Shown: positions 685-59,997 of the stretch, in pieces
Layout: every line of letters begins with the position of its first letter
How positions within the stretch are numbered: the stretch's first letter is position 1
Assembly: GCA_947469885.1 (NCBI GenBank)
Contig: CANIQT010000004.1
Span: forward strand, 62,001 to 126,000
Reading direction: 5' to 3'
DNA length: 64,000 bases
Source of the DNA: Bacteroidota bacterium
GTDB taxonomy: Bacteria; Bacteroidota; Bacteroidia; 2-12-FULL-35-15
Made by a program: the position numbers and the translations under genes
Notes under the pieces: model-generated
Told to the model about the DNA's origin: nothing
Databases searched by the model: none
Seen by the model: the letters and a program-made list of their open reading frames with translations, nothing else

Positions 685-810
685 GCAAATGACCTTTTGT
701 CAGAAAAATACAGGTTGCAACCCGTTGCAGATGATGTTTTGTTTACAAAACACAGTTTGTTACACGTTACAGATGGCGTTTGGAATTCCAAACGCCATCT
801 GTTCCGCCTG
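685..810. repeat. Three-unit 42-bp tandem array of dyads
   Basis: Units at 685-726, 727-768 and 769-810 align without gaps (GCAAATGA, GCAGATGA, ACAGATGG at their starts). The second has a dyad GTTTTGTTTACAAAAC at 736-751 (centre 743.5). The third holds a perfect 34-base palindrome at 769-802 (centre 785.5), exactly 42 bases on. It lies in the 399-base gap after the TonB receptor, whose remainder is AT-rich with no gene. Confidence 0.75.
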
Positions 811-941
811 AAAATGAGCTATTTGCATTAATTTCTGCCAAAACAGCAGGAAAAAACGAAAAAATAAATTAATTGCAGGACTAAAATTATAGTAATAAAA
901 GAACTAAATAATAATAAATAATAATTAAACAACAAACCTCA

Positions 942-985
942 TTTCCCTCCCCTCTCCTTCTGAGAGGGGATAAAGGGGAGAGGTC
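942..985. repeat. Dispersed G/C-strand repeat (CTCCCCTCTCC family)
   Basis: A C-rich stretch (CCCTCCCCTCTCCTTCTGAG) followed by its approximate complement (GAGAGGGGATAAAGGGGAGA) just before the endonuclease gene. Related copies occur near 4722-4762, 24530-24573, 27990-28042, 28096-28143 and 48772-48812, always between genes. Confidence 0.7.
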
Positions 986-998
986 TAAATCAACAAAA

Positions 999-3215
999 AT
1001 GAAAAAACTAATTTACACAACATTATTTGCAATTGTTGCAAGTACAGTATCAATGGCACAAGTAAGTCTTCCTACAGGGTGGGATGCAAGCGGAGCACCA
1101 CCCGCAGGATGGTCGGTATCGGGCACAGCCAACTACACCAGCTCTGCTTATTGCGGAACGGCTTCTCCATCTATTAAATTAGACAACACCGGAGACTTTG
1201 TAATGGTTAATTTTGCTGACAATCCGGGTACATTGACGTATAAAATGCGAGGGGCAAGTTTGGCAGGAGCCACGTTTGCCTTCACGGTTCAAGAATCAGT
1301 GAATGGCACCGTGTGGACTACCCTTAGAGCATTTACGCAAGCCGACTTAACTTCGATTAATACTGCTATGGCTTCGTTCACCGATATGCCTTTGCAGGCA
1401 AGCCGCTACATTCGTTGGTTTTATACATTAAAATCAGCCGGTAACATTGCTTTGGACGATATGAACCTAACCATTGGTGCTGCTGGTCCGGCTCAAGAAA
1501 TCAACGTGCAGGTAGCTGCTGTTAACTATCCGAGCAACGCTACATATTATGCAAGCTCGCCTGTATCAACACCTTCAACCATTAATTTTACTATTCAAAA
1601 CGTGGGTACCACTAACACATTGAACATTGCATCAGCAGTTGTTTCAGGTTTAAATGCTGGAGATTTTGTGGTAGGCACTGTTCCTTCCACTGTAGCTGCT
1701 GCAAGTTCAGCAGCTTTGGTGGTTACTTTTACTCCAAGCATGGCAGGCACTCGCATTGCCGATTTAACTATTAATAGCGATGATGCTGATGAAGGTTCTT
1801 ATGTTATTCATTTTTATGGCGTAGGTGGCTCGTTTGCAACCACTCCTATTTATCAACCTACCGGACTAACATTTACAAACATAAAATCGTATCGCTTCAA
1901 TGCCTCATTTAACAATGCATTCGGAATGCCTGATGGTTATTTGGTGCTTCGCAAAAAAGGCTCTCCGATAACAGATGTTCCAACTGATGGCACTGCTTAT
2001 CAACGTGGAGATGTAATTGGAGGCTCTTCCGTTTTATATTCAGGTAGCGCTACAGCCTTTGCTCCTACTTACATTGTGGCAAATACACAATATTATTTCG
2101 CTATCTTTTCTTACAACGGTCCGGGCATTTACAGAAGCTATTTAACCGCAGCACCGCTTACAGGTAACGTTACCACAGCTGCCACCATGATGCCTGCCAA
2201 TACTTATAACACAGTGCATACAGGAGTTTCCACCTTTGTTGCCGATTTGCACAATGTGGTGTATCCCCACACCCACATGTACTACAGCGATTACGATGAC
2301 AATGTGGTAAACCTTTTCGCTTCGCGAGATACTACCAACGACCAACGTGTAGTTACCTGTGTTTACTCAGGAGAAAATAAAGTTTATACAGCACCATTCG
2401 ATTGGACCATCACCGGTTTCAGTCGCGAGCACTCGTACTGCAATCAGTGGATGCCAGCCGGAACGCTAACTACAGACGAGTGGTATGAAGACTATCACCA
2501 GTTATTTCCTGTCGACCAAAACAACGCAAATGCTGTTCGCAGTAATTATCCGTTGGGCAAAGTGGTTAACGTTAGTTACACTTATCTTGGTTGCAAATTA
2601 GGAACTGATGCGCTAGGGCACACTGTTTTCGAGCCAAGAGATTCGGACAAAGGAGATGCTGCACGTGCTATTATGTACGAAGCAATATGTTATACAACCA
2701 TTGCAGGAAATAACTGGGGCTTGCCAAATCCTATCAGTGTTACCATTCCTTATGGTGAAGACCAAAATATATTGAAACTTTGGAACATTCAAGATCCTCC
2801 TGATGCTTGGGAAATTTCGAGAAATGATTTTATTGATTCGGTTCAAGGAAATAGAAATCCGTTTGTAGATAGCAGTCATTATGCATGTTACATTGATTTT
2901 ACTAACATGTCTTACATTGCAACCAACTCTTGCAACGGGCTTGGAATAAAAGAAAACACCAACACCGATTTAATTTCAATTGCACCGAATCCAAACAACG
3001 GAAACTTTATGATTTATTATTCATCAGCAAAATTTCAAAAGGTAACAATGAAATTAATGGATGTAATGGGAAGAGTGGTTTATGCTAACGAAACAAAAGT
3101 AAACACAGGTGGCAACCCGATAGAAATGAATTTACAAAATGTGAGTAAAGGAATTTATTCGTTAGAGTTTGTTACCGAAAGCGGAAAACAAACCCAGAAA
3201 TTAATTATACAATAA
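999..3215 (+). CDS. Secreted endonuclease I family nuclease with T9SS sorting domain
   Basis: 738 residues. A Sec signal peptide (about 1-20, ending SMAQ) leads into a jelly-roll-like region (22-160), a choice-of-anchor-D/ASH-like beta domain (about 165-280) and an Fn3-like segment (285-390). An endonuclease I domain follows (about 400-640), with the family core FSREHSYCNQW near 473 and YEDYHQLFPVDQNNANAVRS near 497-517. The C-terminus from about 658 (ISIAPNPNNGNF to KLIIQ) is a type A T9SS sorting domain. The family cleaves DNA non-specifically with a divalent metal. The product is probably exported across the outer membrane and surface-held or released, scavenging extracellular DNA. It is much longer than minimal endonuclease I (about 230 residues) because of the added beta domains. 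Confidence 0.88.
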   Translation: MKKLIYTTLFAIVASTVSMAQVSLPTGWDASGAPPAGWSVSGTANYTSSAYCGTASPSIKLDNTGDFVMVNFADNPGTLTYKMRGASLAGATFAFTVQESVNGTVWTTLRAFTQADLTSINTAMASFTDMPLQASRYIRWFYTLKSAGNIALDDMNLTIGAAGPAQEINVQVAAVNYPSNATYYASSPVSTPSTINFTIQNVGTTNTLNIASAVVSGLNAGDFVVGTVPSTVAAASSAALVVTFTPSMAGTRIADLTINSDDADEGSYVIHFYGVGGSFATTPIYQPTGLTFTNIKSYRFNASFNNAFGMPDGYLVLRKKGSPITDVPTDGTAYQRGDVIGGSSVLYSGSATAFAPTYIVANTQYYFAIFSYNGPGIYRSYLTAAPLTGNVTTAATMMPANTYNTVHTGVSTFVADLHNVVYPHTHMYYSDYDDNVVNLFASRDTTNDQRVVTCVYSGENKVYTAPFDWTITGFSREHSYCNQWMPAGTLTTDEWYEDYHQLFPVDQNNANAVRSNYPLGKVVNVSYTYLGCKLGTDALGHTVFEPRDSDKGDAARAIMYEAICYTTIAGNNWGLPNPISVTIPYGEDQNILKLWNIQDPPDAWEISRNDFIDSVQGNRNPFVDSSHYACYIDFTNMSYIATNSCNGLGIKENTNTDLISIAPNPNNGNFMIYYSSAKFQKVTMKLMDVMGRVVYANETKVNTGGNPIEMNLQNVSKGIYSLEFVTESGKQTQKLIIQ

Positions 3216-3271
3216 AACAACAAAATAAACAGCAGAAACAAAACAGGAAATACGTTTTGTTTTTGCTGTTA

Positions 3272-4702
3272 CTATTTAATTTTTTTCATCAATGCAATAA
3301 AATCAGGAGAAGTTTGCATTGCTTTAAAAGCAGTATCGTTTTGCATTCGAGGCAAATCGTTGAACCCATTGATAACCGCTTTGTTTAAAGCTACTAGTGC
3401 TTCTGTTTCATTTCCTTGTTTTGCATTTACATCTGCTGTCAGATATTGTGCTTCGCTGTTGGTAGGGTCAACAAGCACATATATTTTACAAAAATAATCA
3501 GCAGCCGGTAGTTGATTTTGTTTTAATGCTCCGCTTGCCTGCATATATGCCACCAAACTGAGATATCCCAACACCCTTTTGTTCATCTGCATTTCGCTTT
3601 TGTTGTTTCCATTTTTTATTTTTTGGTTGAGCGCAGCAATTTCTTTTTTCCATTTTTCTAAATCCCCACTCTGAAATCCTTTCATGTAAAATTCTTTTAG
3701 CTTCTCTTCGTTTGCCCAAGTTATTTCTTCTTCTCTCAATGCTTTGTCAACGGCTTTGCTTGTTTGCAATGTTTTGTAAGTGGTAAGACAGTAGTTCAAA
3801 TCGGTGAGTCCGTCATAAAAATTTATTGTTTTCTTGCACAAATTAAAAGCTTCGAACTCCTGCTTTTTTTTCATGTACGTTTCAATTTGTTTGATGATTG
3901 GATTTACTCTTTTATTAATCAGGGAATCGTTTTTTGATTTAATGTTTCTTCTCATCTCGCACAACTCCAACCACCAAAAGGCTTCATCCATCACTTCTTT
4001 TTTGCACCATTCGTGTTTTCCTTCAAAAGTAATTAAGGCATGTTTGATGTTGTGTCCGGCAAGTTCTACTTTGTCGTATTTTTTCATTTCTGTAGAATTA
4101 AAATCTTCTTCGCCTGCAATGCCTAGCCAAGTATAGTTATTGCGAGGGTTAACAAAGTTGCTGGCAGGAGTGCTGGCACCTACACATATAACACCTGCAA
4201 TGGCACCGTTCATAATGGTGAGTCCGTTTGCCACCCGTGCACCGCCCGAAAATCCCAATAAATAAATACGCTCTGTGTTTATTGACAAACGATTTTGAGC
4301 ATCAGCTAATAATTTTTCGGCAATAACAGCCGACTCTTCCCAAGCTGTTCCGTTTTTTGAATTGTTGGAACCAACAAGGATATAACCGAATTGCTCTGCC
4401 AAATCTTTGTACATCGAAACTGGCAATTTGCCTGTACCATGTGCATCGAAAGCATACATTACGGGATATGTTTTATCAATAGAATAAGTAGAAGGCAGAT
4501 ACAACGCATAGCTTTGCGAAGCATCGATTTTGCAAATTACTTTTTCAATAATTTCTCCCTTCGGGAAATTTTCTTTTACAACAGGAACAATTGAATCCTT
4601 TGTTTGGTTAGCGGTATTTTCTTTTTGTTTATCACCGCCCGATGTGCAAGAGAAAAACAGGGAAGTAATAATGCTAATGGAAATAAATTTAATTCGAATC
4701 AT
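3272..4702 (-). CDS. Esterase-like alpha/beta-hydrolase lipoprotein with helical C-terminus
   Basis: 476 residues from the ATG at 4702; a GTG seven codons upstream is in frame but would spoil the signal peptide. The N-terminus (MIRIKFISISIITSLFFSC) is a lipoprotein signal with Cys19 as lipid site. Residues about 45-260 look like the esterase/PHB-depolymerase branch of alpha/beta hydrolases: YPVMYAFDAHGTG near the oxyanion region and nucleophile elbow GFSGGARVA near 150. The remaining 200 residues are helical and end in a TPR-like repeat (NETEALVALNKAV). Substrate unknown. It is convergent with the endonuclease gene and downstream of purB on the same strand, separated from it by a dispersed repeat. 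Confidence 0.7.
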   Translation of the reverse strand: MIRIKFISISIITSLFFSCTSGGDKQKENTANQTKDSIVPVVKENFPKGEIIEKVICKIDASQSYALYLPSTYSIDKTYPVMYAFDAHGTGKLPVSMYKDLAEQFGYILVGSNNSKNGTAWEESAVIAEKLLADAQNRLSINTERIYLLGFSGGARVANGLTIMNGAIAGVICVGASTPASNFVNPRNNYTWLGIAGEEDFNSTEMKKYDKVELAGHNIKHALITFEGKHEWCKKEVMDEAFWWLELCEMRRNIKSKNDSLINKRVNPIIKQIETYMKKKQEFEAFNLCKKTINFYDGLTDLNYCLTTYKTLQTSKAVDKALREEEITWANEEKLKEFYMKGFQSGDLEKWKKEIAALNQKIKNGNNKSEMQMNKRVLGYLSLVAYMQASGALKQNQLPAADYFCKIYVLVDPTNSEAQYLTADVNAKQGNETEALVALNKAVINGFNDLPRMQNDTAFKAMQTSPDFIALMKKIK

Positions 4703-4721
4703 ATTTGTTTTTTTTAGGTTC

Positions 4722-4762
4722 ACGTCCCTCTCCTTAGGAGAAGGGATTAAAGGGGACGTTTA
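4722..4762. repeat. Dispersed repeat copy between purB and the esterase gene
   Basis: ACGTCCCTCTCCTTAGGAG followed by AAGGGATTAAAGGGGACGT forms a hairpin-capable copy of the CTCCCCTCTCC family. It abuts the purB stop codon and may act as a terminator or processing site. Confidence 0.6.
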
Positions 4763-6106
4763 TATCCCTGTATAATTATGTGGCGAAATTTGTTTCAATT
4801 CTTTCTTCACTTTATCACTAACATTTAACGTATCAATAAAAGCAGCAATACTTTCTTTCGTAATATGTGTATTGGTGCGGGTTAGTTCTTTCAGTGCTTC
4901 ATAGGGTTTCGGATAACTTTCTCTGCGAAGAATGGTTTGAATGGCTTCTGCTACTACCGCCCAGTTGTTTTCCAAATCTTTTTCGAGAGCAGGTTTGTTT
5001 AAAATTAATTTATCCAATCCTTTTAATAAAGAAGTATAAGCAATTAAACTATGAGCCAATGGCACACCCACATTGCGCAGCACAGTAGAATCGGTTAAGT
5101 CGCGCTGCAAACGGGAGATGGGTAACTTGGCAGAAAAATGTTCGAACAGTGCATTGGCAATTCCAAGATTGCCTTCTGAGTTTTCAAAGTCAATCGGGTT
5201 TACTTTGTGGGGCATGGCTGACGAGCCAATCTCTCCTTCTTTTATTTTTTGTTTAAAATAATCCATCGAAATGTATTGCCATATATCCCTGTCCAAATCA
5301 ATAAGGATGTTGTTAATGCGTTTTAGGGCATCACAAAAAGCAGCAAAGGCATCATAATATTCAATTTGAGTTGTAGGAAAAGAGCGGCTCAACAAAAGTG
5401 TTTCGTTCACAAATTTAGCAGCAAACTGATGCCAATTGGTTTCGGGATAAGCCACATAGTGAGCATTCATATTGCCAGTAGCCCCGCCAAACTTGGCACA
5501 TTGAGGAATGTTTTTAAATACTTCCACCTGCTTTCGCAAACGAACAGCAAACACTTTAATTTCTTTTCCCAGTTTTGTAGGCGAGGCAGGCTGCCCGTGA
5601 GTGCGGGCAAGCATAGGTATTTCAGCCCATTCAGTAGCAAGCAAATCTAATTTGTTTATTACATCCTCAATTGCAGGTACAATTGATTGGTCTCTTGCAT
5701 CCTTAATAGAATAAGGAATAGCCGTATTATTAATATCCTGAGAGGTTAAACCAAAATGAACAAATTCTTTTTCATTTGTAAGTTTTAATACATCAAACTT
5801 TTCTTTGATAAAATATTCAACCGCTTTTACATCATGGTTGGTTGTTTTTTCAATGTCTTTTATTTGTTGCGCATCGGCTTCAGTAAAGTTTAAATAAATG
5901 TTTCGCAAAGCGGGAAACAATGATTTGTCAATACCTTTCAGTTGAGGCAAAGGCAATTCGCAAAGCGCAATAAAATATTCAATCTCCACCCGCACACGGT
6001 AGTTAATCAATGCAGACTCAGAAAAATAATCAGCAAGCTTTGCGGTGGTGTTTCTGTATCGCCCGTCAATTGGGGATATGGCAGTAAGTTTAGTTAATGA
6101 ACTCAT
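4760..6106 (-). CDS. purB: Adenylosuccinate lyase
   Basis: 448 residues from ATG at 6106; in-frame codons upstream (to 6169) would run across the promoter and into tadA, so they were not used. It belongs to the fumarase/aspartase superfamily, E. coli-like PurB branch (about 456 residues). It starts LTAISPIDGRYRN and carries the signature loop GSSAMPHKVNPIDFENSEGN near 295. It splits fumarate from SAICAR in IMP synthesis and from adenylosuccinate in AMP synthesis. No other purine gene is adjacent. It is divergent from tadA; TACCTTCG at 6135-6128 on this strand is a likely -7 element. Confidence 0.95.
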   Translation of the reverse strand: MSSLTKLTAISPIDGRYRNTTAKLADYFSESALINYRVRVEIEYFIALCELPLPQLKGIDKSLFPALRNIYLNFTEADAQQIKDIEKTTNHDVKAVEYFIKEKFDVLKLTNEKEFVHFGLTSQDINNTAIPYSIKDARDQSIVPAIEDVINKLDLLATEWAEIPMLARTHGQPASPTKLGKEIKVFAVRLRKQVEVFKNIPQCAKFGGATGNMNAHYVAYPETNWHQFAAKFVNETLLLSRSFPTTQIEYYDAFAAFCDALKRINNILIDLDRDIWQYISMDYFKQKIKEGEIGSSAMPHKVNPIDFENSEGNLGIANALFEHFSAKLPISRLQRDLTDSTVLRNVGVPLAHSLIAYTSLLKGLDKLILNKPALEKDLENNWAVVAEAIQTILRRESYPKPYEALKELTRTNTHITKESIAAFIDTLNVSDKVKKELKQISPHNYTGI

Positions 6107-6169
6107 AGTTGTTTTTAAAAAGAAAAGCGAAGGTAAGGAAAATATTGATTTTTGTTTTATCTTTATCAC

Positions 6170-6622
6170 ATGGAACTATCTGTTTTTTCTGACCAACATT
6201 TTATGCAGGAAGCATTCAAAGAAGCTAAAAGGGCTTTTGATGCTGACGAAATACCGGTGGGCGCGGTGGTGGTGTGTAACAATAAAATTATAGCCAGAGC
6301 GCACAATTTTACAGAGCGGCTGAACGATGTGACTGCTCATGCCGAAATGCAAGCTATAACTGCTTCTGCCAATTACCTTGGCGGAAAATACTTAAACGAA
6401 TGTACCTTGTATGTAACTCTTGAACCTTGCGTAATGTGTGCAGGAGCTATTGCCTGGGCACAATTAGGCAAACTGGTGTATGGTGCTTCGGATACAAAAA
6501 AGGGTTTTCATTTGATAAGTGAAAAAAAATTATTGCATCCTAAAACCGAAATAATTGCTGGTGTTTTGCAAAACGAATGCAGCGAAATACTTAAATTGTT
6601 TTTTCAAAAAAAAAGAGAATAA
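6170..6622 (+). CDS. tadA: tRNA-specific adenosine deaminase TadA
   Basis: 151 residues from ATG at 6170, giving the usual short N-terminus. Zinc-dependent cytidine/deoxycytidylate deaminase fold: His57 and catalytic Glu59 in TAHAEMQA, and zinc cysteines Cys87 and Cys90 in LEPCVMCAGA. The family converts A34 to inosine in the anticodon of tRNA-Arg(ACG). The tail KKGFHLISEKKLLHPKTEI matches TadA rather than a guanine or cytosine deaminase. It stands alone, 63 bases from divergent purB. Confidence 0.93.
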   Translation: MELSVFSDQHFMQEAFKEAKRAFDADEIPVGAVVVCNNKIIARAHNFTERLNDVTAHAEMQAITASANYLGGKYLNECTLYVTLEPCVMCAGAIAWAQLGKLVYGASDTKKGFHLISEKKLLHPKTEIIAGVLQNECSEILKLFFQKKRE

Positions 6623-6826
6623 GAATTTTTAATACCACACTTTTATAAAGCAATTCATTTATCGTAATTAATATGTCATTCATCTATATCCTGCAATTGT
6701 ATGTCAATACAATGCAACTATTTTGAGTTTATTTGCATCTTTGTAGATACACAGGGGAGATGAATATTGGTGAAATCAGAAAATAACAAGAGTTAGGTAA
6801 TAAATAGTGCGAAGTTTATAAACAAT

Positions 6827-7171
6827 ATGAAAAGAGTGTTAAATAAAAGGAAAAGGAAATCAGCTTTGATACTGTGTTTGGGAGGGGCTATGAGTGTAAT
6901 TATAGGAACAGCTACAGTGTTTCTTGGTACATATTCTATCCAAACAATGTTAGCAAACACATCTTCTGAAACCACCATTTATTTATCAGGATTCGCCATC
7001 ATGTTGCTTGGAATAGGTATTGTACTGCTTGGAACTATCACTATTTTATTCGGCAGAATTACCAATAATACAAAGAGTGCATACAGAACTATGCAAAAAG
7101 AAAGTCATCCCCAAAACAAAGTAACTACAGCTGAGTTTAAAAATATTCGTTTAAATAAAAAGGCAGCGTAG
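6827..7171 (+). CDS. Small membrane protein of unknown function
   Basis: 114 residues with a very basic start (KRVLNKRKRKS) and two hydrophobic segments (about 13-38 and 51-76), then a soluble basic tail. I do not recognise a family. The 200 bases upstream hold no gene. The gene stops inside a hairpin that probably terminates both it and convergent gyrB. Confidence 0.6.
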   Translation: MKRVLNKRKRKSALILCLGGAMSVIIGTATVFLGTYSIQTMLANTSSETTIYLSGFAIMLLGIGIVLLGTITILFGRITNNTKSAYRTMQKESHPQNKVTTAEFKNIRLNKKAA

Positions 7172-7194
7172 TTTTAACACCTCGCTGCCTTTTA
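7160..7194. terminator. Bidirectional hairpin terminator
   Basis: AAGGCAGCG (7160-7168) pairs with CGCTGCCTT (7183-7191) and is followed by T-rich sequence, with A-rich sequence on the other side. It overlaps the stop of the 114-residue membrane protein and faces gyrB. Confidence 0.8.
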
Positions 7195-7213
7195 TTATTG
7201 CGCTACCTTCTCT

Positions 7214-9211
<1,998 letters not shown>

Positions 9212-9376
9212 TTAGGGCACGTAAAAGTAGCTTTTTATATCGAATTCAGTGATGTTTTAGTGAAATAAAAATGGATTATTTTATTAACATTTTTTTGATA
9301 AAAATATGGAGTAAAAAAGGTGAGATTTTTTACGATAAAAATCAAGTAAAAAATGGTGCTTTGATTAAAAATTTGA

Positions 9377-9628
9377 CTTATTGAACTTTCCAACAACCTT
9401 CATGGACTTTCCAATAACTCGAAATTGGCATTAAAGAAACCTAATATACTTTCTAATAATCTTCTTATACTTTCTAATAATCTTCTTATACTTTCCAATA
9501 ACCTTCTTAGACTTTCTAATAACCTTCTTAGACTTTCTAATAATCTTCATAGACTTTCCAATAACCTTCATAGACTTTCCAATAACCTTGATAGACTTTC
9601 TAATAATCTTCATAGACTTTCTAATAAC
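9377..9628. repeat. Twelve-unit 21-bp direct-repeat array
   Basis: Units start at 9377, 9398, 9419, 9440 and so on every 21 bases to 9608. The consensus is CTTCWTAGACTTTCYAATAA plus one base; the 9419 unit is degenerate and those from 9461 on differ by one to three bases. It sits between the divergent gyrB and proline dehydrogenase genes. Both strands stay open only because the unit is a multiple of three; I do not call a protein. Confidence 0.92.
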
Positions 9629-9740
9629 TGTCCTAAAATTACGTAAAAGGCTAAATATTAGTGTTTAACGACACAAGCGTAAAAATTCTGGTATAACCCC
9701 TACTAAACAAGTTTGAAAAGTAAGGTCAACTCCTTTTTAC

Positions 9741-9748
9741 TATATTTG
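9741..9748 (+). promoter_or_regulatory. Putative -7 element for the proline dehydrogenase gene
   Basis: TATATTTG fits the Bacteroidota consensus TAnnTTTG and lies 21 bases before the ATG at 9770. No TTG is seen at the ideal -33 distance. It argues against the in-frame codons upstream of 9770. Confidence 0.5.
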
Positions 9749-9769
9749 TGCAATTATCCATCTATTCTT

Positions 9770-10936
9770 ATGCTGTCATTTAATAATACCGAAATATCGT
9801 TTTCAGGAAAAACCAACAAAGATTTAAACCGTTCGTACTGGCTTTTTAAGCTCATTTCTTATAACTGGTTTGTGAGTATGGGCAAAGTGCTAACTACCAT
9901 TGCCCTGAAATTACATTTACCAATAAAAGGAATCATCAAAGCAACCGTTTTTAAACAATTTTGCGGTGGCGAAACCATATTGGAATGTGATAAAGCAATA
10001 CACGATTTGGGCAAATTTAACATCGGAACCATATTGGATTATTCGGTAGAAGGAAAAGTGTCGGAACACGATTTGGATGCCTGTGCCACCGAAACCATTG
10101 CTACCATTGTCCGTGCCAAAAAAGACACCAACATTCCGTTTTCGGTTTTTAAAGTTACCGGGCTTGGGCGGATGGAAATATTGGAAAAAGTTTCGGCAAA
10201 AAAAGAATTAACTCATGCTGAGGATAAAGAATTTGCCCGTGTTTGTCACCGGGTGGGCAACATTTGTAAAGCCGCACACGATGCTGGTATTCCGGTTTTT
10301 ATTGATGCCGAGCACAGTTGGATTCAAAATGCAATTGATGAACTTGCCAACCAAATGATGGCCCTGTACAACATCCGTAAACCTATTGTTTACAACACTT
10401 TTCAATTGTACCGAAACGACAGGCTGGAATTTTTGAAACATTCGTTTGATTTGTCTGTTAAAGGAAATTATTACCTGGGCGCAAAACTAGTACGGGGTGC
10501 GTATATGGAAAAAGAAAGAGCGCGAGCAATTGCCAATAACTATCCATCGCCCATACATACTACCAAGCAGGAAACAGATAATGATTACAATGCTGCTATG
10601 TCGTTTTGTGTTCAGAATATTGACAGAATAGCCATTTGTGCCGGAACGCATAATGAAGATTCTTCTTTACTACTTGTGGAATTGATGCAAAAAAATAATA
10701 TTCATGCTCACAATAAACACATTTATTTTTCTCAATTATTAGGCATGAGCGACCACATTAGTTTCAATTTGGCTAAAGAAGGATACAATGTGGCAAAGTA
10801 TGTACCTTATGGTCCGGTGCGTGAAGTGGTGCCATATCTTATTCGCAGGGCGCAAGAAAATACTTCGGTGAAAGGGCAAACAGGAAGAGAGCTTGGATTA
10901 ATTATAAAAGAAAAGGAGAGAAGGGCAGCGATTTAA
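9770..10936 (+). CDS. Proline dehydrogenase (monofunctional)
   Basis: 388 residues from ATG at 9770, chosen because a -7 box lies just upstream and the family start (MLSFNNTEISFSGKTN) follows. FAD-dependent PRODH TIM barrel: PVFIDAEHSWIQ, YNTFQLYRNDRLEF, YYLGAKLVRGAYMEKERA, AGTHNEDSS, and the C-terminal helix YLIRRAQENTSVKGQTGREL with the substrate-carboxylate arginines. It oxidises proline to pyrroline-5-carboxylate and feeds electrons to quinone. The P5C dehydrogenase half of PutA is absent, normal for this phylum. Confidence 0.93.
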   Translation: MLSFNNTEISFSGKTNKDLNRSYWLFKLISYNWFVSMGKVLTTIALKLHLPIKGIIKATVFKQFCGGETILECDKAIHDLGKFNIGTILDYSVEGKVSEHDLDACATETIATIVRAKKDTNIPFSVFKVTGLGRMEILEKVSAKKELTHAEDKEFARVCHRVGNICKAAHDAGIPVFIDAEHSWIQNAIDELANQMMALYNIRKPIVYNTFQLYRNDRLEFLKHSFDLSVKGNYYLGAKLVRGAYMEKERARAIANNYPSPIHTTKQETDNDYNAAMSFCVQNIDRIAICAGTHNEDSSLLLVELMQKNNIHAHNKHIYFSQLLGMSDHISFNLAKEGYNVAKYVPYGPVREVVPYLIRRAQENTSVKGQTGRELGLIIKEKERRAAI

Positions 10937-11003
10937 TAATTTGCTGATGTGATGTGATGATTTTATTCATGAATCAGCAAATCAAAATATCAGCAAATCA
11001 GCA
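10937..11003. repeat. ATCAGCAAATC short repeat with inverted arm
   Basis: TTTGCTGATGTGATGTGATG is followed by AATCAGCAAATCAAAATATC and further CAGCAAATCAG copies, able to fold back. It lies between convergent genes. A similar AGCACATCAGCATATCAGCA stretch lies at 61384-61409. Confidence 0.6.
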
Positions 11004-11005
11004 AA

Positions 11006-11440
11006 TCATTTACAATCACAACTATCCTTCTCCATTCTCAAATCAATAGTAGTTACAATTTTCGAAATCGTATCCACATCATCAATTATAATTCTTAAAT
11101 TTTTTCCGGTTGATGTAAGACCCTCTATAGCGTAAGTAGGATAAGGCTTGTGATGCACATCACTTTTATCGTAATTCACTTTTCCGGTTCCTCTTGTTTC
11201 GCCTTTGCCTAAAATTTGTCTGATATCTTCTTCGGTAATATGCCTGCAAAGCATTCTGCATTCGGCATGTTTGGTGTATTCTAACTTTTGCCAGCCCAGT
11301 TCTTCCATTTTTGCAGAGTTTGGCATTTGGCATCCTTTGCCTTTGTAAACCATACTTACAATCAGCATTCCGATTAAAAATCCCAAACCATATAATCTGA
11401 AACGTCTGTATAAATCTGAATTTTTTGAAGGGATAGCCAT
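11006..11440 (-). CDS. DUF4258 domain protein with N-terminal membrane anchor
   Basis: 144 residues. One hydrophobic segment (about 14-31, YGLGFLIGMLIVSMVYKG) precedes a region matching DUF4258: YTKHAECRMLCRHITEEDI, then KPYPTYAIEGLTSTGKNLRIIID, and a Cys/Asp tail (DSCDCK). DUF4258 resembles small toxin-like RNase folds, but no antitoxin gene is beside it and the membrane anchor is unlike a free toxin. Function unknown. Confidence 0.7.
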   Translation of the reverse strand: MAIPSKNSDLYRRFRLYGLGFLIGMLIVSMVYKGKGCQMPNSAKMEELGWQKLEYTKHAECRMLCRHITEEDIRQILGKGETRGTGKVNYDKSDVHHKPYPTYAIEGLTSTGKNLRIIIDDVDTISKIVTTIDLRMEKDSCDCK

Positions 11441-11488
11441 AAAAATTAGTATTGAGTATTGAGATGTGAGTATTGAGACGTAATCTTG

Positions 11489-11537
11489 AAATTTGTAAAT
11501 TCGTATTTATTCGTAATTAGTAACCAATGAACCAATA
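11489..11537. repeat. TTCGTA-type dispersed AT-rich repeat
   Basis: TTTGTAAATTCGTATTTATT and the following CGTAATTAGTAACCAATGAA recur almost identically at 16171-16205 and share AACCAATGAACC with the rsmA upstream repeat at 36557-36663. Confidence 0.55.
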
Positions 11538-11539
11538 AA

Positions 11540-12757
11540 CTACATAGCAGCCATCAGTAAATTAATATCTTTATAAGGAAGGTTAAACATTTCGCCTAAC
11601 ATTTGGTTGGTGAGTGTGCCATTGTATAAATAAATTCCATTTCTCACACCAGCATCTCTTCTCAACATATTTTCTACTCCGCCCTGTTCGCCTATGTTTA
11701 AAAGAATGGGAGCAAAAATGGTACTGAGTGCATACGATGCAGTGCGCGAAACACGAGAAGCAATGTTAGGAACACAATAATGAATGACACCATGTTTACG
11801 AAAAACCGGTTTGGAGTGATTGGTGACTTCGGAAGTTTCGAAACATCCACCCTGGTCAATACTTACATCAATAATCACCGAGCCAGTTTTCATATCACTT
11901 ACCATTGATTCGGTAACTATCTGTGGCGTTCTTCCTTGTTTCGAACGGATAGCTCCAATAACTACATCCGCTGTTTTCAAATGTTTTGCTAATACTCTTG
12001 GTTGAATCACGGAAGTAAAAACACGTGTACCAATTGAAGTTTGCAAACGTCTTAATCGGTAAATAGAATTGTCGAACACTTTAACTGATGCACCCAAACC
12101 TAATGCAGCACGGGTAGCAAATTCGCCCACAGTGCCCGCACCCAGAATAATAACTTCGGTTGGCGAAATTCCGGAAATGCCTCCTAATATAGCTCCCTGC
12201 CCATGATTCACGTTACTTAAATATTCGGCAGCAATCAAAATAGAAGTTCCGCCTGCAATTTCACCCATCGAACGAATAACGGTATAAATGCCATCTTCCC
12301 CTTTTATCCAGTCGAACGCAATGGCAGTTATACGTTTTGCCATTAGTTGTTTAATATAATCTTCGGGTTGAACGGTAAGTTGTAAGGCAGAAATAAGAGT
12401 TTGCCGTTGTTGCATCATTTCTATTTCCTGCGGAGATGGCGGGGCAACTTTAAGAATTATGTCTGCTTTATAAACTTCTTCGGCACTTGCCACCACTTGT
12501 GCACCCGCTTCCGAATAATCATGGTCCTGAAAATTTGCCATTGCGCCGGCATTGGTTTCCACCACCACCTGATGTCCATTATTGATTAGCAAACCAACAG
12601 CATCGGGAACTAGCGGGACCCTGTTTTCCTGAAACGAAATTTCTCTTGGTATTCCGATAAACAATTTCCCCTTTTTTCTACCTACCTCCAGCATCTCTTC
12701 CTGAGGCATTCGGGCAGTCATGGTTAATTCCGCCATTATTTCTTTCGAAGTTTTCAT
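11540..12757 (-). CDS. ald: Alanine dehydrogenase (AlaDH/PNT family)
   Basis: 405 residues. N-terminal AlaDH/PNT domain (IGIPREISFQENRVPLVPDAV) and Rossmann domain with EVIILGAGTVGEFATRAAL followed by VKVFDNS; conserved IIDVSIDQGGCFETS. The family interconverts alanine and pyruvate plus ammonia with NAD. The sequence is somewhat longer and more divergent than Bacillus Ald, as is common in Bacteroidota, so a transhydrogenase-alpha-like role is possible, but no pntB partner is adjacent. A -7 box precedes it. Confidence 0.85.
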   Translation of the reverse strand: MKTSKEIMAELTMTARMPQEEMLEVGRKKGKLFIGIPREISFQENRVPLVPDAVGLLINNGHQVVVETNAGAMANFQDHDYSEAGAQVVASAEEVYKADIILKVAPPSPQEIEMMQQRQTLISALQLTVQPEDYIKQLMAKRITAIAFDWIKGEDGIYTVIRSMGEIAGGTSILIAAEYLSNVNHGQGAILGGISGISPTEVIILGAGTVGEFATRAALGLGASVKVFDNSIYRLRRLQTSIGTRVFTSVIQPRVLAKHLKTADVVIGAIRSKQGRTPQIVTESMVSDMKTGSVIIDVSIDQGGCFETSEVTNHSKPVFRKHGVIHYCVPNIASRVSRTASYALSTIFAPILLNIGEQGGVENMLRRDAGVRNGIYLYNGTLTNQMLGEMFNLPYKDINLLMAAM

Positions 12758-12785
12758 TGTCTATCTCATTATTAAAATAGAAAAC

Positions 12786-12793
12786 AAATTTAA
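12786..12793 (-). promoter_or_regulatory. Putative -7 element for ald
   Basis: On the minus strand this reads TAAATTTG, a perfect TAnnTTTG, about 28 bases before the ald start. Confidence 0.5.
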
Positions 12794-12876
12794 GAAAACT
12801 ATTTGAATACTCTTCTTTATAATTACTTAGTTTTCAAAAAACAATTGTTAGCACAAACAAATGTATAGACGCAAAA

Positions 12877-12909: not shown

Positions 12910-12937
12910 CATGTTTTTTGATGAAAAGGTGAACTAA

Positions 12938-14098: not shown

Positions 14099-14137
14099 TG
14101 TTTTATTTAATTAATAATTCATCATTTATAATTTCCC

Positions 14138-24904: not shown

Positions 24905-25143
24905 AATAAAATTGTTTTTTTAGTTTATTTATTTATAATTCAATAAATAAAGCTAAAAAAGATTTTTTTATTTTATCCCCTGCGGGGGATTGTGGAGGTA
25001 ATAAAACAGGCGTACGTTTGCCTCCGATTTCGGACGGGCGGAATTCAACAACCAATGAAACAAAAGAGGGCAGTATTTGCCAAAAAGTCGTAAATCATTG
25101 AAAAAGAAGGCAAAATAAGGTACATATTTCTTTACAAGAAGAT

Positions 25144-25331
25144 ACCTTACCAACTGGTAAGGTCTATATTTCTAAAGAAACTTTAACCTTACCAGTTGGT
25201 AAGGTCGAAAAAAGGAAAGAAATTTATAACTTACCAGTTGGTAAACCCGAATAATGTAAAACAATTAAAACCTTACTTTATGGTAAGGGAGAATTTGATT
25301 AAAAAATAAATACCTTACTAACAATTTATAA
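25144..25331. repeat. Five-unit 42-bp array of ACCTTA-N8-TAAGGT dyads
   Basis: Dyads start at 25144 (ACCTTACCAACTGGTAAGGT), 25186 (ACCTTACCAGTTGGTAAGGT), 25228 (flanks altered, TTACCAGTTGGTAA kept), 25270 (CTTTAT centre) and 25312 (left half only). The shared TTAC is at 25147, 25189, 25231, 25273 and 25315, exactly 42 apart. Spacers are A-rich. The rest of the 454-base gap (24905-25358) holds a G/C patch at 24975-25040 and no gene. Confidence 0.9.
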
Positions 25332-46297: not shown

Positions 46298-46299
46298 TT

Positions 46300-48654: not shown

Positions 48655-48771
48655 AGTTTTAAAGTTTGTACAACATAATACCCTCATTTGAAAAATGAAG
48701 GAGAACAGTAATAAACTTACTTTTCGTTTGAAAATATTAAATTGGTGGATGATGGGATAGCGGTGCTGAAA
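48655..48771 (+). pseudogene. Decayed duplicate of the mfd 3' end
   Basis: AGTTTTAAAGTTTGTACAAC, then ATGAA.GAGAACA.TAATAA, TGAAAATATTAAAT and GTGGATGATGG run in the same order and nearly the same spacing as mfd 46057-46173. Its first frame reads VLKFVQHN, then a stop, then KMKENSNKLTF, then loses frame. It is 2.5 kb downstream of mfd, same orientation. Confidence 0.85.
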
Positions 48772-48812
48772 GACCTCACCCCCAGCCCCTCTCCTTGAAG
48801 GAAGGAGAGGGG
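48772..48812. repeat. Dispersed CTCACCCC repeat copy abutting the mfd remnant
   Basis: ACCTCACCCCCAGCCCCTCT leads into CTCCTTGAAGGAAGGAG and GGGGAG. It starts at the point where similarity to mfd ends. Confidence 0.7.
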
Positions 48813-48848
48813 AGCGATTTCTGGAAGTAATATGCATTTATTTTTTTA

Positions 48849-50179: not shown

Positions 50180-50377
50180 ATCTCAATTGTTTTTGGACTC
50201 GTTATTTTGATTACATCTTTCATTTTGTTGTGTTCCGAGAATTCCGCTGGTGAATCAAATTTACTTGCGGAAACATCGCACTTGCGCAGTGTTATATGTT
50301 TATAAAATTTATTTTTTCCTATTTTAAACTATTTTTGTTCAATTTTTTAATCAATACCAGTGTTGCCAATGTTTTTT

Positions 50378-50650
50378 GGAACGTCCCAAAAACATTTTTC
50401 GTACAGACGAAAAACATTTTGCCTGTACAAAAATGATTTTTGCCCAGGCAAAAAACATTTTGGGACGTTACTTAAGTGTTTTTGCCTGGACGAAAACCTT
50501 TTTGAAACGTTACAAAGGCATTTTTGCCTGTTCCAAACCTATTTAGTAACGTCCCAAAACGCCAATGGGACGTTCCAAAATTCCATTTCCATGTTGAAAT
50601 GGAACATTTCCGGGTACAAAAACTCCATCGCCAACAGGCAAAACAGTGTT
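50378..50650. repeat. Thirteen-unit 21-bp degenerate array with dyads
   Basis: Thirteen 21-base units, of the types GGGACGTYnCAAAAnCATTT and TGCCTGGACGAAAACCTTTT. Dyads mark the period: TTTTTCGT/ACGAAAAA (centre 50404.5), TTTTG/CAAAA (50424.5), TTTTTGCC/GGCAAAAA (50445.5), GTTTT/AAAAC (50487.5), AACGTCCCA/TGGGACGTT (50561), TTCCATTTC/GAAATGGAA (50592.5). It fills the centre of the 861-base gap 50180-51040. The rest of the gap is AT-rich with scattered TAAGGT motifs and no gene. Confidence 0.82.
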
Positions 50651-51040
50651 TTTATTCCAATTTTAAGCATTGAAACAAAGCAAAACAGTTCATTTATTCA
50701 ATCAAAGAACGAAAAACGCTTAATATTAAGCGTACTTTAAAAATTTGTGATTTGTTGCCCAACCATACTATTACAGGTTCAAGGACTTTTTAAAGTAGTA
50801 AGGTTCACTACATGCGGTTTGATTTAGGTATTTGTAATTTAATTAATGCTTCTGATAGGTTATACGTTGACTTTGAAAATAAGGTTTCACTTTTTTGCAA
50901 TTATTTTTTTGCTGGTCATATAAGGTTATAAGCAGGGTTTCGGAAAGGGTTACGTTTTTTTGCAAATATTTTTTAAAATAAAATCCTTCCTGATTTTATT
51001 ATGCCTTAGTGGTAAATTCCAAAAGTATTAAATCTTACTT

Positions 51041-52697: not shown

Positions 52698-53306
52698 ATG
52701 AAAAAAAGCAAATTAGTATTTCTATTCGTTCTATCACTGGGTATTTCAACAATTTCATTGGCTCAACAAGGCCCTCCGGGCAAACAGGGTCCAACGGGTC
52801 CACAAGGTGCGCAGGGTCCTGCTGGTCCTCAAGGTCCTTCTGGACCACAAGGGCAGTCGGGTTTGCCAGGTCCTCAAGGTCCGGCCGGCATTCAAGGTGC
52901 GCAAGGTCTTCAAGGTCCTCAGGGAGTTCAAGGTCCGAAAGGGCAGTTAGGAGCCACAGGCGCTATGTCCACTTTTGCGGTTTCGTTTAATGTTGAAAAT
53001 AAAGAATCTTCTGCGTGGTTGATTGGTGATAAAGCGGATTATAATTCTGGTTCCAATTCAAATCCTACTCTTGTTTTGTACAGAGGTTTTACCTATCAAT
53101 TTAACATCAACGTTGCCGGTTTTCCTTTCAGAATTCAGTCTGTAAATATTGCAAATGGTGCACTTTATACAATAGGAATGACGCCAAGTATTCAAAATGT
53201 AGAAAAAGGAATTCTTACATTTAAAGTTCCGATGGATGCTCCAAATCAATTGTATTATATGTGTGATACTCATCCTGGAATGACTGGAGTAATAAATATA
53301 AAATAG
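52698..53306 (+). CDS. Secreted collagen-like protein with cupredoxin-like C-terminus
   Basis: 202 residues. Signal peptide about 1-23 (ending SLAQ), then about 22 Gly-X-Y triplets (from [20 protein letters not shown] to KGQLGATGA, about 24-91). A 100-residue beta domain follows, with [17 protein letters not shown] and ending [16 protein letters not shown]. The Cys, His and Met fit a type-1 copper site, but the first His position is Phe (GFPF), so copper binding may be weakened. Paralogue of the next gene, 43 bases downstream. Probably a surface fibrous protein; not shown to be a T9SS cargo. Confidence 0.82.
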
Positions 53307-53349
53307 AGCATAAAGTAGAAATTATAAATCCTAAAATCTAGATTATCAA

Positions 53350-54771
53350 ATGAAAAAACAAACTATTCTTTTAGCAGTCATTATAACTTGTCAATTATCA
53401 ATTGTCAATTCCTTTGCCCAATCACCGCAAGGATTCAATTACCAAGCAGTAGCACGAACCTCTTCGGGAGTGGCAATTACCAATCAATCTATCGGGTTGC
53501 AAATTCGACTTTTGCAAGGCAGTGCTACAGGTACTGTGGTTTATACCGAAACACATACCTCTACTTCTAATAATATTGGTTTATTAAATGTAGTGGTTGG
53601 TACAGGAATTACTATTGATAATTTCAATTTAATTGACTGGGCAAATGGTCCTTATTTTATTGAAATAAGTATGGATGTAACAGGAGGTGCTACGTATGTA
53701 TTGATGGGCGCTCAACAATTAATGAGTGTGCCTTATGCCCTGTATGCTGCCAATGGCGGCACAACAGGAGCTACAGGAGCCACAGGAGGTATAGGTCCTC
53801 AGGGAGTGATTGGTTTGACAGGAGCGACAGGTGATGTGGGTCCCACAGGAAATACAGGTGCAACAGGTTTCAGTGGCTCCGATGGCGATAGGTATGCAAC
53901 TTCTTCTACCGATATGCTGACCATTGGATTGGGGATGCAAAGTTTAACTGTTCAAACGGGATTACAATATTCAGTTGGACAAACGGTACTAATAGCAAAT
54001 TCTGTTACTGATTTAATGAAAGGAAACTGTGTTTCTTATAATCCTTTGACAGGAGCATTGGTTGTGAATGTTACCATCGTTTCTGGTTCAGGGACATTTG
54101 GTAGTTGGAATGTTAATTTGGATGGAGCACCAGGTCCTGTGGGAGCTGCAGGGGCAACAGGACCTGCGGGTGCAAATGGTACTAACGGCAGTAACGGGGC
54201 AACAGGGGCCACAGGAGATAACGGAACTAATGGAACAAATGGTGTTAATGGCGCAACAGGTGCAACAGGAACTAATGGAACAAACGGAACCAATGGTGTG
54301 AACGGAGCAACAGGAGCTACCGGTGCGAATGGAACAAATGGTGTTAATGGTGCTACAGGTGCTACAGGAGCAACAGGAACTAATGGAATAAACGGTACAA
54401 ATGGAACCAATGGCGCAACCGGTGCGACAGGTGCTGCCGGGGTTTATGCCGCCCAGTTTAATTTTGTGAACAATGGTTTTACCTCGTGGTTAGTGGGCAA
54501 TGTTTCTGATTATGTATCCGGAAATAATTCGAATCCTACTCTTAATTTATATAAAGGACACACCTATTATTTTAACGTAACTGTAAGCGGACATCCTTTA
54601 AGAATTTCTTCAACCAATGTATTCCCTGGAACACCATTTAATACAGGTGTCACCAACCAGGATGCTCAAAACAGTGTATTGGTTTTTAAAGTGCCTCAGG
54701 ATGCACCCGCTACTTTATATTATAATTGTATTTATCATTCAGGCATGTTAGGGGTTATTAGTATTCACTAG
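53350..54771 (+). CDS. Large collagen-like protein with cupredoxin-like C-terminus
   Basis: 473 residues. Signal peptide about 1-24 (ending SFAQ), then a Bacteroidota exoprotein N-domain (PQGFNYQAVARTSSGVAITN; QQLMSVPYALYAANGG). Gly-X-Thr repeats run at 136-180 and, longer, at about 255-370 (GATGATGTNGTNGTNGVNGA), separated by a beta region. The C-terminal domain is homologous to the previous gene and ends YYNCIYHSGMLGVISI. It keeps the first His (SGHPLRIS), so all four type-1 copper ligands are present. GXT repeats are the threonine-rich variant that favours glycosylation in bacterial collagens. A terminator follows. Confidence 0.84.
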   Translation: MKKQTILLAVIITCQLSIVNSFAQSPQGFNYQAVARTSSGVAITNQSIGLQIRLLQGSATGTVVYTETHTSTSNNIGLLNVVVGTGITIDNFNLIDWANGPYFIEISMDVTGGATYVLMGAQQLMSVPYALYAANGGTTGATGATGGIGPQGVIGLTGATGDVGPTGNTGATGFSGSDGDRYATSSTDMLTIGLGMQSLTVQTGLQYSVGQTVLIANSVTDLMKGNCVSYNPLTGALVVNVTIVSGSGTFGSWNVNLDGAPGPVGAAGATGPAGANGTNGSNGATGATGDNGTNGTNGVNGATGATGTNGTNGTNGVNGATGATGANGTNGVNGATGATGATGTNGINGTNGTNGATGATGAAGVYAAQFNFVNNGFTSWLVGNVSDYVSGNNSNPTLNLYKGHTYYFNVTVSGHPLRISSTNVFPGTPFNTGVTNQDAQNSVLVFKVPQDAPATLYYNCIYHSGMLGVISIH

Positions 54772-59388: not shown

Positions 59389-59414
59389 TAGGAATTATAA
59401 ATTAGGAATTACAA

Positions 59415-59444
59415 GAGCCCTGCAATTTTGTGCGGGGCTTTTTT
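59415..59444 (+). terminator. Rho-independent terminator after nrdA
   Basis: AGCCCTGCA pairs with TGCGGGGCT (one G-T or mismatch), loop ATTTTG, followed by six T. Confidence 0.87.
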
Positions 59445-59619
59445 ATGTTTTAAAATAAAGAAATATTAAATAATTTCTCCTTTTATTCTCATTACCTCCA
59501 AGCAAAAAATAAAAGAGATACATATCTAATATATTGCACAAGTTTGTTGTTCAATCCGAAATTACCATAGAGGTAGCCAAAAACACATCATTTTTTAAAT
59601 AAAACACCTAAAACGTTAA

Positions 59620-59800
59620 AAAAAAACTACTTATATGGTAATTGTTGGTTGCCCAAATGCTACCTTATCACATTCTAAGGTACTACTTTCTTTAACCAAA
59701 TACTACCTTAGTGGTTACTAAGGTAATACCCGGTAGGGCAAATATCGTCTGGGCGACTACCGAGGTAGCATTTGGGCAACAAAATGCCACCTCGGTAGTC
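59620..59800. repeat. 42/43-bp array of ACCTTA-N8-TAAGGT dyads (second locus)
   Basis: ACCTTATCACATTCTAAGGT (59662-59681) and ACCTTAGTGGTTACTAAGGT (59705-59724) are the same 20-base dyad as the 25.1 kb array, 43 apart. GGTA repeats at 59637, 59679, 59722 and 59765. Outer inverted repeats: GTTGCCCAAATGCTACCT (from about 59649) with its complement (59764-59781), and GACTACCGAGGT (59755-59766) with ACCTCGGTAGTC (59789-59800). Confidence 0.78.
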
Positions 59801-59934
59801 GTTAAAAAGGCATTTTTGAGGAAAGAAATTATATAACCTAATAAATATCAATAAATTAGTAAGTGTATGGCTATTTGGTCTGAAAATGTAATCCGGAGGA
59901 GTATAAAGATAAACTAATCAATAAAACGCTAAAA

Positions 59935-59997
59935 GATGAATTTGGGTGGTTTGAGGACGAATTTGGGTAGTTTGAGGATGAATTTGGAAATAAGTAT
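59935..59997. repeat. Three-unit 21-bp direct repeat
   Basis: Units at 59935, 59956 and 59977: GAYGAATTTGGGTRGTTTGA plus one base, the third diverging after 11 bases. It lies in the 731-base gap between nrdA and the B12-binding gene. The rest of the gap is the dyad array and AT-rich sequence, with no gene. Confidence 0.88.

What the first reader, a model, noticed from the sequence alone, without database searches (positions are those of the whole stretch)
685..59997. Six intergenic arrays with a common 21 or 42-43 bp period but mostly unrelated sequences
At 685-810 (42), 9377-9628 (21), 25144-25331 (42), 50378-50650 (21), 59620-59800 (42-43) and 59935-59997 (21) tandem units repeat every 21 bases or twice that. 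Unit sequences differ between loci, except the pair sharing ACCTTA-N8-TAAGGT, so one ancestral repeat cannot explain them. 21 and 42 are two and four turns of B-DNA, so every unit faces the same side of the helix. At 685-810, 25144, 50378 and 59620 dyad centres, not only direct repeats, keep the period. All lie in gaps, mostly before start codons or between divergent genes. They could be DNA-binding scaffolds, curvature elements or a repeat-generating process that acts with a fixed step. I do not know a description of this.
Basis: partly seen in the sequence, partly recalled or inferred. Interest (0 to 1): 0.85.

Follow-up and report, generated by a model that had tools for sequence, protein, structure and literature searches.

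The report
Sequence-free arrays locked at 21 bases
In this Bacteroidota bacterium and its closest relatives, many gaps between genes hold tandem arrays that share a 21-base step but not a sequence; they are likely platforms on which DNA-binding proteins would line up on one face of the helix, which would make spacing rather than sequence the conserved feature.

Summary
In 464 kb sampled from the window's genome, intergenic self-similarity peaks at lags 42, 21, 84 and 63 (1516, 1484, 984, 937 hits; shuffles 6-17). In 664 kb, 29 of 43 strong intergenic arrays have periods that are multiples of 21. Units of different arrays are on average no more alike than shuffled units. The trait is concentrated in one supported clade (7 of 20 genomes in a tree), and absent or sporadic outside it. 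Of 333 unit distances in 50 arrays, 318 are multiples of 21, 13 off by one, none by 2-9; flanking DNA would predict about 215 register breaks. Array 4 (50378-50650) lies in a duplicated element; its unit is an 18-bp dyad plus 3-bp spacer, kept symmetric by paired changes without RNA-type bias. Curvature, LytTR motifs, HU/IHF counts and RNA hairpins do not explain it. Best reading: spacing is under selection as a two-turn protein platform (inferred, 0.45); main rival: a clade-specific copying process with a 21-bp step (0.35). Nine literature searches found no description.

The parts
661..810 (.). Array 1, 42-bp period with dyads, about 3 units, between genes 60-599 and 999-3215; orthologous 42-bp arrays with diverged units in G034 and G012
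   Evidence: lag 42 = 38, 0 of 200 shuffles; orthologues: lag 42 = 265 in G034, 232 in G012
9377..9628 (.). Array 2, 21-bp direct repeats, about 11 units, no clear dyads, between gyrB (7214-9172, -) and proline dehydrogenase (9713-10936, +)
   Evidence: BLAST of the array finds only weak unit matches in 2 of 35 relatives
25116..25331 (.). Array 3, 20-bp dyad ACCTTACC-AGTT-GGTAAGGT and variants every 42 bp, upstream of gene 25359-26288
   Evidence: related palindromic array in the same genome at G000:C4:32383-32545
50378..50650 (.). Array 4, 21-bp step, two dyad types that tend to alternate (42-bp super-period); 18-bp dyad plus 3-bp spacer; core of a duplicated element
   Evidence: a 126-aa GTG ORF (50360-50740) happens to run through it
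50220..50293 (+). Conserved left module of the element around array 4 (weak in this genome, about 71% to a G034 copy; stronger among copies of G034 and G012); limits approximate
50680..50835 (+). Conserved right module of the element (77-89% identity in the longer matches); short inverted repeats visible by eye; 10 BLAST places in 4 of 36 genomes
   Evidence: no Rfam match at gathering score and only sub-threshold ones in the gap
59620..59800 (.). Array 5, weak 43-bp period with an ACCTTAGT-GGTT-ACTAAGGT dyad
59935..59997 (.). Array 6, 21-bp direct repeats, about 2.5 units; a shorter form lies downstream of the ribonucleotide reductase gene in G034

Best explanation
These are intergenic tandem arrays whose 21-bp step (two turns of B-DNA) is conserved while their sequence is not, and they most likely serve as platforms on which DNA-binding proteins would sit side by side on one face of the helix. 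Shown: the step is genome-wide, concentrated in one clade, and kept with few register-breaking indels although neighbouring units differ at about a quarter of positions; in the best-studied family the unit is an 18-bp dyad plus a 3-bp spacer, with the two dyad halves matched unit by unit. Inferred: the period is held by selection on helical register; units turn over by tandem duplication and loss, which homogenises each array separately, so that each locus and species ends with its own unit; dyad arrays would hold dimers and direct-repeat arrays would hold asymmetric binders in a row. Untested: which proteins bind, whether one protein with loose specificity or many serve the arrays, and what the bound platform does (nucleoid organisation or insulation between genes seems likelier than promoter control, because arrays also lie between convergent genes).
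For: Lags 21, 42, 63 and 84 stand at 87 to 217 times shuffles in the sampled genome. Units unrelated across loci: mean best match 8.68 against 8.60 shuffled, 378 pairs of 28 arrays. 318 of 333 unit distances are multiples of 21, 13 off by one, 2 are 11, none off by 2-9; the flank indel rate predicts 215 breaks, 86 of them of 2 bp or more, against 15 seen, of which only the two distances of 11 are not single-base shifts. Dyads: 523 of 729 pairs Watson-Crick against 447 (sd 14) when right halves are permuted within elements, 0 of 2000 as high; four of the seven best covarying column pairs are dyad partners, the top two included, one of these being the two central neighbours; G-T 51 and A-C 52 mismatches, so symmetry is at DNA level. 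Mean in-register palindrome z = 2.06 over 44 arrays, 14 above 3. Orthologous arrays keep the period in three species.
Against: No binding protein identified and no shared motif, so one sequence-specific protein cannot serve all arrays. 13 of 44 arrays have palindrome z below 1 and in 27 of 50 no inverted unit is found: many are pure direct repeats. 14 of 43 strong own-genome arrays have other periods, though four of these (20, 22, and two of 106 = 5 x 21 + 1) are near the rule. Recent duplications (2-3 copies, 90% identity) are at 21 or 42 in 42 of 68 cases, which a fixed-step process predicts equally. Arrays were found by their period, which favours regular ones; a process that can only copy in-register arrays could also give the indel deficit. 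HU/IHF counts do not track the arrays and LytTR counts only loosely. The one-face pattern of conserved columns is only about 2 standard errors above chance.
Confidence: 0.45

Rival explanations
1. The arrays are neutral or nearly neutral satellites laid down by a clade-specific replication, repair or recombination process that copies DNA in fixed steps of about two helical turns, likely in any intergenic gap.
For: Explains free sequence, presence in all kinds of gap including convergent, concentration in one clade, and the 21/42 lock of recent duplications, 42 of 68 (some of these may be parts of larger arrays). The outgroup sample has no array with a multiple of 21 among its 3 strong ones.
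Against: The indel deficit (15 seen, about 215 expected) and DNA-level dyads matched unit by unit look like constraint. Close relatives also use 22 or about 41.5 bp (G023, G019), so the step follows roughly two helical turns more than an exact number. No enzyme candidate.
Confidence: 0.35
2. Arrays are selected for intrinsic DNA curvature: any unit repeated every 21 bp adds its bend in phase.
For: Explains why sequence is free and 21/42/63 are favoured over 10/11 or 31/32. Arrays bend about twice as much as fully shuffled sequence in both models.
Against: They bend no more than arrays with permuted unit columns: z 0.21 +- 0.16 (Olson), 0.29 +- 0.18 (Bolshoy), -0.06 +- 0.12 (AT dinucleotides), 50 arrays. 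No 10-bp sub-period in units (mean z -0.15). The bending parameters were recalled.
Confidence: 0.08
3. The arrays are RNA: trains of hairpins that act after transcription.
For: Dyads with compensatory changes in the element family; inverted repeats in its right module.
Against: G-T and A-C mismatches are equal (51 and 52), so no strand is favoured; no Rfam match at gathering score in the window; many arrays have no dyad.
Confidence: 0.05
4. All arrays descend from one ancestral 21-bp repeat that spread through the clade's ancestor and then diverged past recognition.
For: Orthologous arrays diverge strongly while keeping the period. Paralogous elements keep modules while their arrays fall into different types. 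A few pairs of distant arrays exceed the largest shuffled score, such as array 2 and one in G025.
Against: Most arrays share no flanks; overall similarity between loci is at chance while orthologous units are still recognisable. It explains origin, not maintenance, and can be true together with the best explanation.
Confidence: 0.2

Closest known systems
BrickBuilt, minisatellite inside a MITE of Porphyromonas gingivalis (PMC4596501; abstract, outline and one passage read)
   Same: Bacteroidota; intergenic; tandem units without spacer between conserved leader and tail parts, like the element around array 4
   Different: One tandemly repeated 23-nt sequence in its 19 copies; here unit sequences differ per locus, most arrays lack shared flanks, and the step is 21
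Intergenic VNTR minisatellites (for example MIRU, BOX; recalled)
   Same: Tandem units between genes, copy number changing by whole units
   Different: Unit lengths of known sets vary from locus to locus (recalled); here 29 of 43 strong arrays of the own-genome sample have multiples of one length
Operator or centromere arrays such as ParR/parC, HipB and LytTR sites at 20-22 bp spacing (recalled)
   Same: Binding sites about two helical turns apart, direct or dyad
   Different: Those serve one cognate protein with one motif (recalled); here no common motif and on the order of 170 loci (extrapolated)
REP/BIME palindromes and RAYT systems (recalled; PMC3733652 seen in a search listing only)
   Same: Intergenic palindromic units in clusters
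   Different: REPs share sequence across loci; these do not

Membership tests
BrickBuilt-type MITE minisatellite | Same unit sequence in all copies | tested here: not met
   Cross-array similarity at the shuffled level on average, 378 pairs of 28 arrays
BrickBuilt-type MITE minisatellite | Conserved leader and tail around the array | tested here: inconclusive
   Met for the family of array 4; for most other arrays no shared flank found
CRISPR array | Identical repeats separated by unique spacers | tested here: not met
   Units abut and vary at scattered columns; only the element family has a 3-bp variable part (read by eye)
REP/BIME palindromes | Recurrent sequence at many loci | tested here: not met
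LytTR operator arrays | Core [TA][AC][CA]GTTN[AG][TG] (recalled) in the unit | tested here: not met
   1 of 28 unit consensus sequences against 0.79 in shuffles
LytTR operator arrays | Enough LytTR genes, tracking the arrays | tested here: inconclusive
   Counts are 17-23 in five of seven clade genomes but 10-11 in the other two; G014, G024 and G001 without arrays have 13-16, and G013 with a weak 43-bp repeat has 19
Phased A-tract or curvature elements | Bend greater than expected for the composition and period | tested here: not met
RNA hairpin arrays | Excess of G-U over A-C mismatches on the transcribed strand | tested here: not met
   51 against 52 over 81 units; Rfam none at gathering score
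Protein-binding platform (works like) | Spacing under constraint and DNA-level site symmetry | tested here: met
   indirect, and dyads only in part of the arrays
Protein-binding platform (works like) | A protein that binds with 21-bp spacing | not testable with these tools
   No binding data are at hand

The most novel reading that the evidence does not exclude
A bacterial lineage has evolved a genome-wide 'spacing code': on the order of 170 intergenic arrays that are read by geometry alone, two helical turns per unit, with sequence free to change, by a clade-specific protein or copying machine not yet known.
Probability: 0.3. Interest if true: 0.92.

Novelty: new variant of a known kind. Interest (0 to 1): 0.8.

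Why it matters
Intergenic tandem repeats are usually families of one sequence or a mix of unit lengths (general knowledge). Here unrelated sequences share one length tied to the DNA helix, in one clade, with register-breaking indels rare. Either a nucleoid or regulatory system reads spacing instead of sequence, or a mutational process has a two-turn step; each would be new, and population sequencing can tell them apart.

Tried and rejected
Tried and rejected: (1) Curvature, AT phasing and a 10-bp sub-period. (2) LytTR operators: motif not enriched; gene counts are higher in five of seven clade genomes (17-23) but 10-11 in array-bearing G021 and G020 and 13-16 in array-free G014, G024 and G001, and about 17 genes could hardly serve about 170 arrays. 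(3) HU/IHF expansion: 1-5 genes per same-genus genome with or without arrays. (4) Protein-coding heptads: no ORF of 80 aa or more with a usual start runs through array 2, and unit distances of 18 or 24 never occur. Against this, a 126-aa ORF does run through array 4 and a 102-aa one overlaps array 1, and three other arrays sit inside ORFs that my caller accepted. (5) RNA families: none at gathering score, only sub-threshold ones near array 4. (6) Promoter-only role: 7 of 27 placed arrays are convergent. (7) Rearrangement breakpoints as cause: arrays lie at some synteny breaks, but several breaks in window 1-16000 have no array (read by eye). (8) Phage link of the gene next to array 3: no match.

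Caveats: genes were called by my own ORF and hexamer script; in predicted genes (404 kb) lags 63, 126, 42 and 21 are also the top ones (883, 882, 697, 642), at far lower density than in gaps, due to three swallowed arrays plus collagen-like and other protein repeats. (180 of 181 distances exactly 21) used only arrays already regular and is superseded, which used 50 of 53 arrays (three too short) including nine added by hand, three of them because they break register. One search used 44 arrays with periods 21-126; one search shows a 29th own-genome array with a longer multiple of 21 that was not used. One search used 25 of 52 arrays. The 31 rows count array L009 three times. The 81 element units include four counted twice, since G012 C136 and C284 read as two ends of one broken copy; 73 units are distinct. 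The phase of each element was chosen for best pairing, which inflates the pairing total but not G-T against A-C. Outgroup samples are small (7.8-60 kb each).

Papers: PMC4596501 abstract, outline and one passage; PMC4060949 passages; all others only in search listings. 'Not in print' rests on nine searches of open-licence PubMed Central papers only.
Full report
What was given. Six intergenic stretches of the window were said to share a 21 or 42 bp step without sharing sequence. I read all of them, ran Tandem Repeats Finder and tested each against 200 dinucleotide shuffles. All six pass at their best lag with 0 of 200 shuffles as high. Array 5 (59620-59800) is weakest, at lag 43.

Genome-wide test. 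The window is 64 kb of a 4.07 Mb assembly in 50 contigs. I sampled twenty further 20-kb stretches, called genes with a simple ORF and hexamer score, and counted 16-bp windows with at least 12 matches at each lag in 172 intergenic regions (45 kb of 464 kb). Lag 42 gave 1516, 21 gave 1484, 84 gave 984, 63 gave 937, 105 gave 622, 126 gave 605; shuffles gave 6-17 and the median lag 16. Without the window, lags 21 and 42 still give 1274 and 1254. Lags 20, 22, 41 and 43 give 57, 237, 24 and 133. Of 172 regions, 35 have some clear lag; the best lag is 21 in 12, 42 in 10, 63 in 1, 22 in 1, 20 in 2, 14 in 4 and others in 5. With more sampling (664 kb), Tandem Repeats Finder gave 156 intergenic arrays of period 9 or more. 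Of the 43 with a score of at least 95, 29 have a multiple of 21 as period; the other 14 have 20, 22, 23, 36 (two), 38, 39 (two), 40, 52, 73, 106 (two) and 167, and the two of 106 are 21-bp arrays with one extra base per five units. In G034, G012, G025 and G021 together 16 of 28 are multiples of 21, in the outgroup sample 0 of 3. I worked with the 28 own-genome arrays of period 21-126 and 16 from relatives. Scaled up, 28 in 664 kb is roughly 170 per genome (extrapolation). Three further arrays hide inside ORFs that my caller accepted.

Unrelated sequences. For 28 arrays (own genome and relatives) with an informative 21-column profile, the best match of every pair over all shifts and both strands averages 8.68, against 8.60 for column-shuffled profiles. 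About 10% of pairs exceed the 95th percentile of shuffles and 4% the 99th, so a few pairs are related, such as array 2 and an array of G025. Flanks of most arrays match nothing else in the sequence held, or only short dispersed repeats.

Where they lie. Of 94 own-genome gaps of 200 bp or more, arrays occur in 10 of 52 tandem, 10 of 27 divergent and 7 of 15 convergent gaps (27 arrays counted). A promoter role cannot be general.

Who has them. In samples of relatives, the 21/42 signal is strong in G034, G012, G020, G021 and G025. G023 has 22 and 42. Outside that group G019 has one long array with 41/42/83 and one with 21, and G013 a weak 43. It is not seen in G001, G003, G005, G006, G007, G010, G014, G017, G018, G024, G026, G031, G033 and G035 (20-60 kb each), nor in 7.8 kb of G022, which has other periods. 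In a proline dehydrogenase tree of 20 genomes, G000, G034, G012, G020, G021, G023 and G025 form one group with support 100/99; three of the 20 were not sampled for arrays. In clade genomes 31 rows of five or more copies include 19 at 21 and 7 at 42 (one array counted three times); the outgroup sample has none by the same count, and one 8-bp and one 25-bp array with its own gene model. Among 80 gyrB loci of Bacteroidota (3-12 kb each), L027, which is G034 itself, has a 42-bp array and L049 a short 21-bp one; some others have 14/21/28-bp or unrelated repeats, and there is no general dominance of 21/42.

Evolution of single arrays. At array 1, G034 and G012 have arrays in the orthologous gap with the same 42-bp period (lag 42 = 265 and 232). 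Their units are still recognisably related to each other (26 of 42 columns in the best shift) and weakly to the window (20 of 42; shuffled 16), each homogeneous within its species. BLAST with array 2 finds only weak unit matches in two relatives. Array 4 is the middle of an element. Its right module (50680-50835) matches 10 places in 4 of 36 genomes: 1 in G000, 5 in G012, 3 in G034 and 1 in G023. The copies inspected carry a 21-step dyad array on the same side of the module, of several sequence types (C29 and C31 of G034 are alike, C209 and C273 of G012 are alike); the short contig G012 C311 shows only a remnant. In G034 the copies on C5 and C29 have modules about 87-93% identical while the arrays between them are of different types. 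Length differences between copies include a gap of about one unit.

Anatomy of the unit. In ten aligned pieces (nine elements, one read as broken over two contigs) the array unit is an 18-bp dyad plus a 3-bp spacer. Of 729 pair cells, 523 are Watson-Crick, 51 G-T, 52 A-C and 103 other. Permuting right halves among units of the same element gives 447 (sd 14), never as high in 2000 tries. Among column pairs the two best covarying are dyad partners (one of them the two central neighbours), and four of the best seven are. The equality of G-T and A-C argues for double-stranded DNA as the selected form. Across 44 arrays, in-register palindromy has mean z 2.06; 14 exceed 3 and 13 are below 1. In 27 of 50 arrays no inverted unit is found.

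Register. Scanning 50 arrays with a four-unit profile at free spacing gives 333 distances: 292 of 21, 17 of 42, 6 of 63, 3 of 84, and 15 others (20 twice, 22 seven times, 41 once, 43 twice, 62 once, 11 twice). Adjacent units differ at 28% of positions. Flanking intergenic DNA between the genome and G034/G012 has 192 gaps per 1795 mismatches over 74 alignments, 40% of them 2 bp or more. At that ratio 215 register breaks would be expected in the arrays, 86 of them of 2 bp or more. The arrays were found by periodicity, so the size of the deficit is an upper estimate; the absence of offsets 2-9 is the clearest part. A cruder control is weaker: the repeat finder's own indel percentage is 3.6 for 21-multiples against 5.9 for short-unit arrays in this genome, 1.9 against 2.3 in G034, and 0 for three short-unit outgroup arrays. 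Substitutions in arrays are ordinary in kind (51% transitions, flanks 44%).

Explanations. Spacing under constraint, free sequence, DNA-level dyads and presence in all kinds of gap point to a geometric requirement, most simply proteins bound side by side every two turns. This is inference; no binder is known. A fixed-step copying process explains origin well and maintenance less well; that relatives also use 22 or about 41.5 bp fits two helical turns with some play better than an exact ruler. Curvature is a by-product rather than a target. HU/IHF does not track the trait and LytTR only loosely. RNA is disfavoured.

Known kinds. The nearest described thing found is BrickBuilt in Porphyromonas gingivalis: a 23-nt minisatellite between leader and tail, 19 copies in one strain (PMC4596501). 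It resembles the element of array 4 but not the genome-wide set. Nine literature searches in open PubMed Central papers found no description of arrays with one period and many sequences.

Verdict. Real, strong, concentrated in one clade and not described in the literature searched; mechanism inferred.

Noticed in passing
50680-50835: A conserved intergenic module with short inverted repeats, 1-5 places in four genomes of the clade, beside a dyad array in the copies inspected; it may be a non-coding RNA or the end of a mobile element.
   Followed up: partly
48769-48816: A dispersed short element with many matches in G034, G012 and G025 (query 2770-2816).
   Followed up: no
46299-46460: Another dispersed intergenic repeat with many matches in relatives (query 300-460).
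   Followed up: no
52698-54771: Two collagen-like genes (Pfam PF01391) with in-frame repeats, not far from array 4.
   Followed up: no
59389-60119 and 50180-51040: Genes on the two sides of arrays 4, 5 and 6 lie on different contigs in G034, so gene order seems broken at these gaps.
   Followed up: partly
24629-24904: A 91-aa LuxR-type (GerE) protein beside array 3.
   Followed up: no
L011:148-419, L022:12913-13145, L010:12071-12332: 21/42-bp arrays that stay open in one frame and would be annotated as 7- or 14-residue protein repeats.
   Followed up: partly
L166:18995-19477: In G019, outside the clade, a long array alternating 41 and 42 bp units.
   Followed up: no
36593-36666: An 8-bp array overlapping the start of ORF 36658-37437.
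   Followed up: no
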